This document shows, one piece after another, positions 487 through 64,000 of a stretch of DNA of 64,000 nucleotides. Location of the stretch: the NCBI RefSeq assembly GCF_963675165.1, contig NC_087380.1:3525803-3589802 (forward strand), in the 5' to 3' direction. Numbering within the stretch: the first letter of the stretch is position 1; each line of letters starts with the position of its first letter. This stretch comes from Halichondria panicea (lineage: Eukaryota; Porifera; Demospongiae; Suberitida; Halichondriidae). The notes below the pieces were generated by a model. The model did not search any database, was not told the DNA's origin, and saw nothing but the letters and a program-made list of their open reading frames with translations. Made by a program: the position numbers and the translations under genes.

Positions 487-1638
487 CCAGTGGCACCAGC
501 TCACTCCACCTCCCCTCTGCAGCTGACGTTTTGGCTCTCACCTGACATTATAGATATTTAATGTACTGCTATATAGATTTGTAGTCACACCTGCACCATG
601 ATGTTGTCAGTGCTGACTAGCCTGGTATCTTCAACGGCATGGAAAAGTTCTCTTCTTCCTTTAGACACTACCAGATCCGAACCAGACCCTTGAGGAGCGA
701 ATCTGACATCGTAGCCAGTAATCCTCCCATACGACCTTGTGGGAGTGGTCCAAACCACATTAGTGCAGAAACCAATCACCAGGGATGGGGCATTAGACCC
801 TAAAAGAAAGGTAGAAATAGAATCGACAATTTTGTTCCTGATAATTACACAGAGCATTTTGCTCAGTACAACTATTGTACAAATATTAATGCATGGTAAG
901 TTGCAGACAAGTTTTTGTAAATGTGTAGGATACTGGTAGGGATGTACGCAGGTGTGTTTACGTGTATTGCGCAAACATTTTCTAGAATGGTATCAGTCAA
1001 GTCACTTACTTGTATCCCCAGTCATGGTTACCACCTCACAGCTCCTGTTCTGTCTTCCCTCATCCTGATCACTCACTCCATTCTCAGTGATCACTCGGAT
1101 GGTGTAGATGGTGAGTGGCCGCAGACCAGACACTGAATAGTCCACCAGGGCATCTTGTTTGACATACGGCCTGCTGTTGTGTTGAGTGAAGGTCTGGTTG
1201 TCCTCAGAGTAGAATATATTGTAGTAGAAGTCATCTCTCCCAGTGATCTCAGGCCTCTCCCAACGCACAGTGATTGTGTTACCTTGAGTTCTCTCAGCAA
1301 CTACTTGCAAACTCTTACAGTTAACCGGAGGAGCTGTTGCATGCATGTATGGTGCAAAAATTTGCAAACTTTTATCAGTCAATTAATACTGCAGTACCCT
1401 ATAAATTCATTCGAATACAAGAAAATGAGTACTTGAAATATGTGGGCTGAATACTCCTTACCTGAACACACAAAGTTGGGTCCCTCTAATTTTGTTCTGT
1501 AGTAGCCACGGAAACAGGTACACTTCATGATAATATTGAGATTTTTTCCAGAATTAAAGCTGTTTCCAGGACAAGGAACACAAGCACTCTCTCCAGTAGA
1601 TAAGTCTGCTATATAGGTCCCCAATGGGCACCTGGGCA
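487..1638 (-). CDS. Eph-receptor-like Cys-rich module and two FN3 domains
   Basis: Exon 1638-1462 reads VPRCPLGTYIADLSTG, CVPCPGNSF and CTCFRGYYR, the C-x2-C and C-x-C spacing of the ephrin-receptor-like (GCC2/GCC3) Cys-rich fold. Exon 1333-1010 is one FN3 domain, with TVRWERPE, YYNIFYS and LRPLTIYTIRVITENGVS. Exons 799-591 and 541-487 form a second FN3 that ends VRAKTSAAEGRWSELVPL. The first two exons are phase 1-1. The last donor (GTAAGC at 486) is phase 1, so coding continues to the left, but I see no further exon before base 1. Confidence 0.82.
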
Positions 1639-4600
1639 CTGTGGGAAAATATATACTCATCTAAAGCAGTACCGTATTACTAGAATATTTTGCTGGTGAA
1701 AAACCTTTGCGAATGAGCCAAATCAGCAGAAATGTGGACCATTTGCGATCTAATATTGCGTTCTGGCAAGGATCGTGTGTATTTACTAGTAATAATTTAG
1801 GTTTTGTGGATTTTATTTGATCAACCATCACAAAGTTCGCAAATGTTTGATGCTCGCTAGTAATACCGTATACCAAGTCTGCATGTTATTGTACATAATT
1901 TACAATTACAAAATACAGCTTTAGTGCTGAGTAGGCCCTATTTCTTTTTCACCCATTATTCTATTCTTGAAAAATGTGTCATAAAAAACCTCATAAAAAT
2001 TCCCCCAAAATGTGACATGTAATTAGAGACAACTTGAAATTAAGACGTAGAGATCAACATAAACCAGCACTGACACAAGACATAATTGATTCTCTCAATG
2101 TTATCTTGCTGACTTGAATTGATCCATAATATTCACCTTCAATTAACCACCATGAGAACGTCGTTATGCAAAAATGAAAAATGATAATGGACATTGTTGA
2201 CACCTATTATGCTAAAATTATTCCGAGCATAATTTATCAGGGCCTAGTGCTGAGCCTTCGATGGATGCATACATCATGCAGCTACAATTATAAGACAAGT
2301 TATGATAAGTATTGAAAAACCAACCAACACATAATTATACACCGTGCAAGCGATATCTACATTGATTCCTAAACCATGCATGCATGCATGCAGGTAAGAT
2401 ATATCGAAAACTAATTATACAAATCCACGAATAATGATAACTTCGTCACTCACACTCATAATAAGAAAATGCTGTATCCACACAGAATCATTCGGAGAAC
2501 AACAACCTAACCAACAACCAATGAAGTTACTGACAGCAGCGCAATTAGTTTACCAAATAAAGGCAATACCTTTGCAGGTGGTACAATTGAGGAAAGTTGT
2601 ATACTGTATAATTATAGCCGGTTATTATTGAGGCACTAAATTCACGGATTGCTCAAACTAAACATTTCACGAATTTTATTTTAGAGGAAAGGACCACATC
2701 CCTACAGTAGAGAGGTCTTTCAACCGGAAGTAAACCAATTTTCGAGGCACTAAACTTTCGAGGGTCATTCCTCAAAAATTAGTGCCTCGAATATCCAGCT
2801 ATACGGTGGATTGGTATAGCAATAGGAAATGGTTGCTTTTTTGCTCTCATGTGGTTTCAAGAAGTATTTGTTTCAAGTCAAGCACTTGGTTTCAAGAAGT
2901 ATTTGTTTCAATTCAAGCACTTTGGCGGTTTTGCACTCACCAAACACTCGCACTTCTCTCTGCTCAGTTGCTTGCCCACAAGGACCTGGGTCCTTACTCA
3001 GTCGACAGCTGTAAGTTCCTTCGTCACCCATGTCCACACTCGACACAATCAGTGATCCATTGGCCATACTACCATCAGGAGCTGTGATTTCTAACGGAAC
3101 CATTTCATTGTCATCAGTAGCGCAGTTTAGCTCAATTGTCTCCCCAACAAAGGCACAGAGAGTTACATTCTCAAGTCCTACCTGGTTGGTCAACCTGAAT
3201 TATTACAGTAATTTAATGTTGAAGGTTATGCATAATGAATACCTGGAGCAGCCATTGTCCACCCGCGATGCAAAGAAAAACTCTTCTCTATATTGAGCAG
3301 TGAAAGTGACATCCTCCCTATCTGTAGAATTTAATTCGTATTACTAGTACTACAAGAGAAAAATTTGTAAATCAGCAGACCCTTTCTTTCTAATTTTTGT
3401 ATTCTAGCAAAGATTGTACAGGTACCTGCATGTGTATAGGTTTTTTGTGATCTTATTTTTACAAAACGATCAACGCTCACAAAATTCGCATAAAGTAAAA
3501 AACGTAGTTCAATTTTATGGTACCAATCTACATAGCAATGATACCTAAGTGTACGCACACGCATGAGTTGTATTTAAGTACAGAAAGAAGGAGAGTAGAC
3601 TTGCTAGAGAGTATAGAGAATGAGATTTGTATGAAATAGCACATACATTTTTGGTTAGAATTATAAGAACTCTTTTCTTTCCAAGAGTTGTTTCATGTGA
3701 GACTCTTATATAGCTACAGCCTAAGCTAGCTCTTCCGTACGTATATAGTTTTTATTCTCTGCATAATTATGCCAATAGTAGATCAGTTTGGATATATTAT
3801 TATATTAACCGAATGTAGTCACACCCAATTCTGCATTCCTGAAGCGTAACATACCGTATAGGGCGAAATTTTCGAGGCACTTATATTTCGTGGAATGGCC
3901 TCCAAAAGTATTTCATTGCACAATGTTTGTGGAATGACTGCTTACCGGAAGCCACGCCTTTAATCTTTGCATGTTATAGCAGATAATTCAATTTTTGTTG
4001 GCTTAATTTTCGTGTAGGATTGCTAATCCATGAAATCAGTGAAACTTAAGCCCCTCGAAAAGTTCGCGCTATAATATGGTACATATATATACATACATAC
4101 ATACATGCATGCAAAGGTTTCAGAGATACGATGCAGTATTAATTAGTTGCCATTGCAATGAGGTCATAATTTATATAGATACTAGCTTACAAATTGTCAT
4201 AAATATTCACTTACAGGCAACCATGGAGACAGCGATAGCTGGAATATGGCCAGAGTCTATAGCGGTACAAGTGTAGTTGTCTTTGTTGTCAGTAGTGAGC
4301 AGAGGTGAGGTGGACACAACTATACCAACACCATTCCTCCACTCGTAAAATACCTCTGACACACTCTGTCCGGTGCAGTTCAACATTATGATATCACCTT
4401 CAAGAATGCAAACAGTACACCCAACAGGGACAACATCACGGCTCTGTGGGAACTGAGTGTTCTCACTAGGGCAGACCTGAACATCTGGAGCAGAACCTGT
4501 AACAAGACAGACACTTACATTATACAACCATACCTGCACTGTATGTGACAGGATTAAGTATATAGGTACCAATAGGAATAGTACCACGCACAAATTCTGA

Positions 4601-62869: not shown

Positions 62870-64000
62870 GTAAGTGCAATGCCACGAAAGGGTTTAACAC
62901 ATACCTCAAACATCTTTTAGTAACCACGATATATTATCACCATCCCCATCTTCACTCCTATAGTCTTATCTTTGCGACACACTCGTGTTAATTCTTGGCA
63001 TAACTTCAGTAATTACAATTGACCTAATATGGCTTCTGTCAGCATCTTCATTGGTCATTGGTTAGGTCGACATCGTTGGCTCTCTGTTGCACATTCGTTA
63101 TGTATATAGAGTTCTCTAAACTGTTACAATTGACTAACTACAGCTCCCCATAATAAATTCTACATGAAATATCATCTTATGCTACTGTCTCATGCACTTT
63201 ATAATTGTAACTATAACAATTGTGTCTGTTTGGAATATGCCAGATAAGCGAGTGGATAAACCATACCTATAGTTTGTACATGTCCACCCACTCAACTGAG
63301 AAAATAGCGGGGCACATGATCGCATGCACAAATGATAACCACGCCCATAGCCATGGTAATGGTGCGCATTTAAGGGACATGCCTAATTATAGTAGAACTT
63401 TGACCCTGTTCAGAAATTAGCCGGATAATCGATTCTATGACTCCATACACACACATACAGATGTCCCTGAATCAATTAACCATACTGCTATCACTAGCAG
63501 CCTCATTTCCTTGCGTGCAGTGGAAATCACATTCATCATTCCAGCAGAAAATAATATCCCTATAGCTGAGTATCGCTACATCCTTTGCAGGAATGACTGT
63601 GCTAATTCCACAATTTCCACTGTAAGCACAGTGTCTAGGGGCAACAACATGCTTAGCTTCACTATCAGACAACTGATTCCAAACAGTCAGTATATTTTGA
63701 GGGTGTATGCTGTGAATGAGTTCACAGGCGGCACTACTCCTGTTGATGACGCTGATGCTCACATTTTCAATTCAGCAACTAAAGGTAAGAGATATCTTCA
63801 TGATTATGCTTGTACTGAATTGAGCAATAATTATGCTCGCTGCATCTATAACGCCTTGTTAGAATACACAACAGTACTACAGAACCGTATTTTATCGTTT
63901 ATCGTATTATATGCAGCTGATGGAAGACCAGTTAACCTGATAGTTTACTTATCTACTGACACTCATCTGGTATTGTCATGGACACTCCCAGCACTTGCAA
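60598..64000 (+). CDS. Gene D: four-Ig cassette joined to FN3 pair, probable second adhesion GPCR (3' end outside window)
   Basis: Exons: 60598-60907, 61027-61281, 61458-61967, 62063-62332, 62450-62528, 62613-62869, 63461-63784, 63917 onward. All phases match. The ATG at 60598 is at the same place as in gene A and opens the signal peptide MVSKVLQLTLVLGIVAVTGI; an upstream in-frame ATG at 60577 is less likely. Four Ig domains are followed by two FN3 exons closely similar to those of gene C (53112-53882). Since gene C continues from this FN3 pair into HRM-GAIN-7TM, gene D probably does as well beyond the window; that is inference. It lies 3 kb downstream of gene C in the same orientation. Confidence 0.85.
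62870..63460. other. Gene D intron between Ig and FN3 modules, nothing recognised
   Basis: Unique-looking intron. This is where the Ig cassette of one gene meets the FN3 block of another, so any recombination scar would be expected here; none is obvious. Confidence 0.45.
63461..64000 (+). CDS. FN3 domains of gene D
   Basis: [36 protein letters not shown] and [12 protein letters not shown] align with the first FN3 of gene C. The next exon (63917) reads DGRPVNLIVYLSTDTHLVLS then WTLPALA, as in its second FN3, and runs off the window. Confidence 0.88.

What the first reader, a model, noticed from the sequence alone, without database searches (positions are those of the whole stretch)
487..63784. 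One four-Ig exon cassette used three times in two receptors on opposite strands
Cassettes A and B (minus, 2.9-10 kb) and C (plus, 60.6-62.9 kb) have the same six-exon layout and closely similar protein. A/B lead into an Eph-like Cys-rich plus FN3 stalk, while C leads into the FN3 pair of an adhesion GPCR. The same binding module appears to be plugged into different receptor types.
Basis: partly seen in the sequence, partly recalled or inferred. Interest (0 to 1): 0.75.

Follow-up and report, generated by a model that had tools for sequence, protein, structure and literature searches.

The report
Shared Ig module in different proteins
In this animal genome a block of six exons coding for a signal peptide and four immunoglobulin-like domains heads a secreted protein and a membrane receptor that are otherwise unrelated, and the copies appear to swap stretches of DNA with each other, which suggests they belong to one recognition system.

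Summary
The six-exon cassette is real and present three times in the window. B and A form one minus-strand gene (BA, 17 predicted exons, 10052 to 380): signal peptide, 8 Ig-like domains, Cys-rich segment, 2 FN3, then a stop. By the model it is secreted, with no transmembrane or intracellular part. Cassette C begins an adhesion GPCR (gene D: 2 FN3, HRM, GPS, 7TM; 60.6 to about 69.7 kb). The bodies are unrelated and homology ends within about 30 bp of the last cassette exon, so this is module sharing, not whole-gene duplication. Genome-wide I group the matches into nine places, six with all exons open: among them a second adhesion GPCR (E), an Ig+TSP1 gene on another contig, and a damaged copy 728 bp before a plexin/Met-like kinase gene. 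Paralogues of these bodies carry other N-termini (Sushi, Ig, Calx-beta, IgGFc-binding). Copies are mosaics: a 98-100% identical tract crosses an intron-exon border between contigs C4 and C9; near-identical receptors D and E differ mainly in exons 2-3; PHI gives 0 of 2000 permutations. Most likely an N-terminal recognition module shuffled at a phase-1 intron and diversified by ectopic gene conversion. Function is inferred; no expression or binding data.

The parts
7739..10052 (-). Cassette B: six exons (10052-9749, 9690-9442, 9128-8622, 8523-8248, 8118-8040, 7992-7739); signal peptide and four Ig-like domains; start of gene BA
   Evidence: splice models; open frames; exon 4/5 borders chosen by homology
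2941..6409 (-). Cassette A: six exons (6409-6164, 6085-5831, 5095-4592, 4496-4215, 3321-3243, 3194-2941), internal in gene BA; its first exon starts at an acceptor, without a signal peptide
   Evidence: phase-1 junction from B's last exon (7992-7739) to 6409
1462..1638 (-). Cys-rich exon of gene BA, Eph-receptor-like pattern, below Pfam cut-off
   Evidence: PF07699 E=0.057, 13.7 bits against 23.1; paralogues
487..1333 (-). FN3 exon (1333-1010) and second FN3 in two exons (799-591, 541-487)
   Evidence: (fn3 1.1e-13, two stretches)
380..423 (-). Last exon of gene BA: short tail and stop, no transmembrane segment
   Evidence: nine aligned stalk copies stop 5-21 codons into this exon; hydropathy maximum outside the signal peptide 1.68 in 19 residues
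60598..62869 (+). Cassette C: six exons (60598-60907, 61027-61281, 61458-61967, 62063-62332, 62450-62528, 62613-62869); start of gene D
63461..64000 (+). FN3 pair of gene D (63461-63784, 63917-64224); the gene runs on past the window to about 69.7 kb (HRM, GAIN/GPS, 7TM in L002)
52657..57662 (+). Paralogous adhesion GPCR (gene C): Sushi exon(s) in place of the Ig cassette, then the same FN3-FN3-HRM-GAIN-7TM body
   Evidence: 77-79% DNA identity from 53104 on; Sushi 1.9e-11

Best explanation
The cassette is an N-terminal exon module: signal peptide plus four Ig-like domains, running from about the start codon to a phase-1 intron. SHOWN BY SEQUENCE: by splice models it heads a secreted 8-Ig/Cys-rich/FN3 protein (BA, where the module is doubled) and an adhesion GPCR (D, with a near copy E), with other copies elsewhere. 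Homology between these proteins is confined to the module. The copies are mosaics, and the near-identical receptors D and E differ mainly in exons 2-3, at synonymous sites and in adjoining introns as well. INFERRED: module copies were joined to new bodies by exon shuffling at the phase-1 intron, and ectopic gene conversion moves sequence between copies whatever body they serve. This keeps secreted and membrane proteins in one family of binding surfaces while changing them. The likely role is recognition (of self/non-self, microbes or a partner cell), the secreted form acting as ligand, decoy or matrix partner for the receptor form, possibly by homophilic binding.
For: Exon layout and phases shared. 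Bodies differ: fn3/HRM/GPS/7tm_2 in D against Cys-rich/fn3/stop in BA. Between copies on different bodies, homology at the start-codon exon begins 4-94 bp before it, and ends -16 to +27 bp from the last exon base, apart from short scattered pieces further on. Body paralogues carry other N-termini: adhesion GPCR with Sushi (gene C), IgGFc_binding (L019, L020) or Ig plus Sushi (L021); stalk with Ig (L009), Sushi (L012, L013, L016) or Calx-beta (L015). Mosaic structure: PHI 0 of 1000 permutations with seven copies, 0 of 2000 with six. C9 copy against A 98-100% over about 260 bp spanning the end of intron 2 and the first part of exon 3, then 86-98% and, after the exon, 69-89%; C9 against B 94-100% in the middle of exon 1 but 67-75% in exons 4-6. 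D against E: exon 2 78%, exon 3 90%, other cassette exons 96-99%, FN3 exons 98.7-100%; dS 0.318 in exon 2 and 0.146 in exon 3 against 0.044-0.070 in exons 1, 4 and 6.
Against: No transcripts were available, so every junction is predicted; a spliced transmembrane form of BA is not excluded. No ligand or expression is known. The copies could be shuffled and converted passively, without a joint function. The exon-3 domain could not be modelled (pLDDT 30). D/E could partly reflect haplotypes placed in one assembly. dN/dS is near or above 1 in exons 2-4 of the D-A pair, which fits relaxed constraint as well as diversification. The tyrosine-kinase association rests on a frame-broken copy. No control gene family was put through the PHI test.
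Confidence: 0.6

Rival explanations
1. Plain tandem duplication of one gene whose copies later diverged at the 3' end.
For: Eight of the nine cassette places lie on one contig, C4; D and E are near-identical copies of one receptor.
Against: The bodies of BA and D are different domain types, with paralogues carrying other N-termini; homology ends near an exon border.
Confidence: 0.05
2. Ordinary exon shuffling plus neutral concerted evolution: the module is promiscuous, but the proteins share no ligand or pathway.
For: Exon shuffling of extracellular modules is a general feature of animal genes (PMC8001218, search listing and start of abstract only; the phase-1 rule is recalled); several modules here are swapped, not just this one.
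Against: D and E differ most in the first two domains while the last domain and the FN3 exons stay nearly constant; six copies keep open frames, with dN below dS in 37 of 40 pair-by-exon comparisons (8 pairs).
Confidence: 0.3
3. Assembly or haplotype artefact: copies are alleles or mis-joined haplotypes.
For: D and E are 98-100% identical in places, and each has a near-identical IgGFc-type receptor gene beside it; the copies were not phased.
Against: No N in the 83,998 bases read around the window; E is inverted relative to D while the two IgGFc-type genes keep one strand, so it is not a simple repeat of one stretch; A and B are 75-93% identical by exon within one gene; the C9 copy lies on another contig with a different body.
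Confidence: 0.07

Closest known systems
Paired IgSF receptors with gene-converted ectodomains (Siglec-11/Siglec-16 PMC5701461; CEACAM families PMC5112662, PMC2832619; search listing and start of abstracts only)
   Same: Similar ligand-binding Ig domains kept alike or exchanged between proteins with different outputs; gene conversion
   Different: There both partners are IgSF receptors with opposing cytoplasmic parts; here the module is shared by a secreted protein and an adhesion GPCR
Sponge adhesion GPCRs (Amphimedon, PMC4302439; passages read)
   Same: GPS, HRM, fn3 and Ig domains in long N-termini; that paper already raises addition and shuffling of N-terminal domains
   Different: The passages read do not mention an N-terminal cassette shared with non-GPCR genes or exchange between copies
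Eph receptors (PMC6485061; passages read)
   Same: Cys-rich segment followed by two FN3 domains in gene BA
   Different: No Eph ligand-binding domain matched, no transmembrane segment and no kinase in BA
Botryllus fuhc (PMC3691228; start of abstract only)
   Same: Secreted and membrane products considered in one recognition locus
   Different: There products of one polymorphic locus; here separate genes with unrelated bodies sharing one module

Membership tests
Adhesion GPCR (gene D) | GPS/GAIN followed by a class-B 7TM domain | tested here: met
   7tm_2 3.7e-19 (69.4 bits, cut-off 20.6), GPS 1.1e-5 (26.2, cut-off 22.5); GAIN only 17.4 of 26.5 needed; scanned as a rough join of open frames
Eph receptor (gene BA) | N-terminal ephrin-binding domain | tested here: not met
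   one search scanned cassette A to the stop (784 residues): no such Pfam match; cassette B, at the very N-terminus, was not scanned but is the same module
Eph receptor (gene BA) | Transmembrane segment and tyrosine kinase after the FN3 pair | tested here: not met
   stop in the next exon in nine of nine aligned copies; one kinase query (tblastn, E up to 1) found nothing in L001 or L003, the 20 kb downstream of the window's left end
Phase-1 exon-shuffled module | Module bounded by phase-1 introns and found in different gene contexts | tested here: met
   inside BA, cassette A is bounded by phase-1 introns on both sides; elsewhere the module starts with the start codon
Paired receptors with gene-converted ectodomains | Tracts of exchange in the ectodomain of otherwise different proteins | tested here: met
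Paired receptors with gene-converted ectodomains | Shared ligand and opposite or linked signalling | not testable with these tools
   no binding or expression data
Allorecognition locus | High polymorphism between individuals and control of fusion/rejection | not testable with these tools
   one genome only

The most novel reading that the evidence does not exclude
The genome keeps a recombining pool of recognition modules that are joined to several bodies at once (secreted stalk protein, adhesion GPCR, perhaps a plexin/Met-like tyrosine kinase), with sequence flowing among them by gene conversion, so that soluble ligand or decoy and receptors of different signalling classes co-diversify as one self/non-self or microbe recognition system.
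Probability: 0.25. Interest if true: 0.85.

Novelty: new variant of a known kind. Interest (0 to 1): 0.6.

Why it matters
Ectodomain exchange by gene conversion is known to me mainly from immune receptor families of one architecture. Here exchange tracts link a secreted protein, adhesion GPCRs and an Ig/TSP1 gene on another contig. If the proteins share a ligand, this would give a sequence-based way into how an early-branching animal (inferred) builds and keeps diverse recognition receptors, and would put an adhesion GPCR into that setting. It also shows concretely how new receptor architectures can arise, by plugging a start-codon-to-phase-1-intron block into different bodies.

Tried and rejected
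Kinase end for gene BA: rejected. The PF07714 list (capped, 129 of 1749 candidates scored) shows none near the window's left end, one kinase query found none in L001 or L003, and the aligned stalk copies stop. A tyrosine-kinase gene does lie in the window (minus, about 25.4-16.2 kb), but upstream of BA and not part of it.

Cassette as N-terminus of an RTK: copy c6 (L006) stands 728 bp before TIG/PSI exons of a kinase gene (L006/L007), same strand, phase-1 compatible. But its exon 3 is frame-broken, no open junction into exon 4 was found, and the window kinase gene's exon at 23970-23557 (TIG 7.7e-11) has no blastn match there. I count it as a remnant or possible allele, not as proof.

First five-exon model: replaced by six exons. 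Searches use the five-exon numbering (their exon 5 is exon 6 of the final model; the short exon is left out); one search repeats identity and PHI with six exons, not dN/dS. One search leaves out c6 because it is frame-broken, and prints 8 of the 15 possible pairs of the six copies.

Structure of the exon-3 domain: pLDDT 30, not used for a fold search. Organism: six top cysteine-protease loci were cut out of 77 matches to look for silicatein; five of the six printed an active site and all show cysteine (L027 printed none), so 'sponge' stays an inference. Paper searches with no or weak yield. Similarity between L018 and the window upstream of its kinase gene was tried as a sign of a shared Calx-beta N-terminus and rejected, because the matches run on both strands like a repeat; the Calx-beta match of L018 itself is below cut-off (0.0052; one exon alone no match), so I do not count L018 among the other N-termini.
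Full report
SETTING. The window is G000:C4:3525803-3589802 of a 131-Mb genome in 39 contigs. I take it for an early animal, perhaps a sponge, from genome size and gene content; a look for silicatein among the top six of 77 cysteine-protease matches found none (five of the six loci printed an active site), so this is inference only.

OBSERVATION. Stop-to-stop translations show the same protein in three places. Splice modelling gives GT-AG junctions and a six-exon cassette: signal peptide with the first part of domain 1, the rest of domain 1, a second domain of about 170 residues, domain 3, a short linking exon, and domain 4. Phases are 1,1,1,1,2,1. The short exon was missed at first and then found open in all seven aligned copies.

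GENE BA. Cassettes B and A are not two genes. The last exon of B (7992-7739) joins in phase 1 to the first exon of A at 6409, whose former signal-peptide part is gone. The model has 17 exons from 10052 to 380, 16 of 16 junctions GT-AG, 1365 residues and no internal stop (B's exon 4-5 sites chosen by homology). After the cassettes come a Cys-rich exon (Ephrin_rec_like only at E=0.057, below cut-off), FN3 and FN3 (fn3 1.1e-13), a short tail and a stop. Nine aligned copies of the stalk end, BA's own included, all stop 5-21 codons into the same exon; one of them (L004, a fragment) is in a shifted frame. Outside the signal peptide the most hydrophobic 19-residue window scores 1.68. BA is therefore best read as secreted. 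The stalk query matched 72 places; I count 15 loci with a long FN3 match at 71% identity or more, 11 of them on C4. Of these I read eight, BA included: the N-terminus is the cassette in BA, Ig in L009 (ig 2.2e-11), Sushi in L012, L013 and L016 (2.4e-8, 1.2e-9, 7.5e-8), Calx-beta in L015 (6.3e-7), and was not seen in L010 and L014. That these exons belong to the same gene as the stalk is read from order and strand.

GENE D. Cassette C is followed by two FN3 exons and, beyond the window, HRM, GAIN/GPS and 7TM (HRM 26.7 bits against 26.2 needed, GPS and 7tm_2 above cut-off, GAIN below). The neighbouring gene C has the same body at 77-79% DNA identity from 53104 onward, but Sushi in place of the cassette. 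Two further HRM-GAIN-7TM bodies follow an IgGFc_binding domain (8.6e-51 in L020; 2.8e-25 in L019). L021, a more distant body, has Ig and Sushi. Gene E (L005) is an inverted near copy of D.

COPIES. The cassette query gave 45 matches, which I group into nine places: A, B, D, E, c5 (cassette plus the second FN3 and the stalk tail; L006), c6 (L006), a partial copy (L011), a fragment (L004) and C9 (L008, followed by another Ig-like exon and TSP1_ADAMTS 1.8e-9). Six have open frames in all six exons: A, B, D, E, c5, C9. c6 is frame-broken; its neighbour is a plexin/Met-like tyrosine-kinase gene (PF07714 3.7e-77 on my join of its exons). That family has many copies on contig C12 (capped list); one of them (L017) starts with a signal peptide, a Sema-like segment (my reading; no Pfam match) and PSI (8.8e-10; frames). 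The 7TM frame 4.6 kb behind the C9 cassette has its own possible start and I take it for a separate gene.

BORDERS. Between copies on different bodies, homology at the start-codon exon begins 4-94 bp before it; for cassette A, whose first exon is internal, it begins within 9 bp of that exon's first base. It ends -16 to +27 bp from the end of the last cassette exon. c5 and c6 share 78-88 bp more, D and E share the whole region, and A has short scattered matches further on to c6, D and E.

EXCHANGE. Nearest neighbours change along the cassette. C9 resembles B at 94-100% in the middle of exon 1, and A at 98-100% over about 260 bp of intron 2 and exon 3 (falling to 86-98% further on and 69-89% after the exon), while in exons 4-6 it is only 67-80% like any copy. 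Because the A-C9 tract includes intron, selection on protein alone cannot explain it. D and E are 96-100% identical over long stretches but drop to 72-86% inside exon 3 and to 78% in exon 2. dS is raised in those exons too (0.318 and 0.146 against 0.044-0.070), which points to replacement by a different copy rather than selection of amino-acid changes alone. A home-made PHI test finds neighbouring sites far more compatible than shuffled sites (0 of 1000 with seven copies; 0 of 2000 with six); no control family was tested. For D against A, dN/dS is about 0.8-1.3 in exons 2-4 and about 0.2 in the last exon.

MECHANISM. Shown: shared module, unrelated bodies, exon-bounded homology, mosaic copies. 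Inferred: joining by exon shuffling at the phase-1 intron, exchange by ectopic gene conversion, and a role in recognition in which a secreted and a receptor form share or bind related ligands. Rivals are neutral concerted evolution of a promiscuous module, and assembly effects.

KNOWN WORK. Exon shuffling of extracellular modules in animals is well described (PMC8001218, listing and start of abstract). Gene-converted ectodomains in paired receptors are known (PMC5701461, PMC5112662, PMC2832619; listing and start of abstracts). Sponge adhesion GPCRs with Ig, fn3, HRM and GPS are known (PMC4302439, passages). Eph receptors in sponges are known (PMC6485061, passages); BA fails the Eph definition. 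Searches combining sponge or adhesion GPCR with gene conversion, domain shuffling or exon shuffling (one search showed 10 of 124 papers) listed no paper that by title or abstract start reports such a shared cassette; most subscription papers are not in that library.

VERDICT. Real, with the interpretation half right: module sharing yes, two receptors no. New variant of a known kind.

Noticed in passing
window 25386-16200, minus: Plexin/Met-like tyrosine-kinase gene (TIG, PSI, IPT, TM, kinase) upstream of gene BA; its N-terminus was not resolved. Many relatives lie on contig C12 (4.5-5.6 Mb, capped list).
   Followed up: partly
window 49364-52173, minus: Retroelement: frames with SCAN/CCHC and integrase zinc-binding matches between two direct repeats (49364-49586, 51975-52173, 88% identical), within the Sushi stretch upstream of gene C.
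   Followed up: partly
window 11705-11834 and 12130-12259: Inverted repeat of 130 bp, 97% identical, just upstream of gene BA.
   Followed up: no
L004 (C4:3484000-3492999), minus: Segmental duplication of the BA 3' region carrying a truncated cassette joined to FN3 sequence; a kinase-like frame (8506-7328) lies just upstream.
   Followed up: partly
L019 and L020: Adhesion GPCR genes with an IgGFc_binding N-terminus, one beside D and one beside E.
   Followed up: partly
L011 5442-6089, minus: Short in-frame tandem repeat of about ten units beside a degraded cassette copy.
   Followed up: no
G000 contig C10 1.70-1.94 Mb: Fifteen tyrosine-kinase matches close together, 12 of 15 without internal stops.
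   Followed up: no
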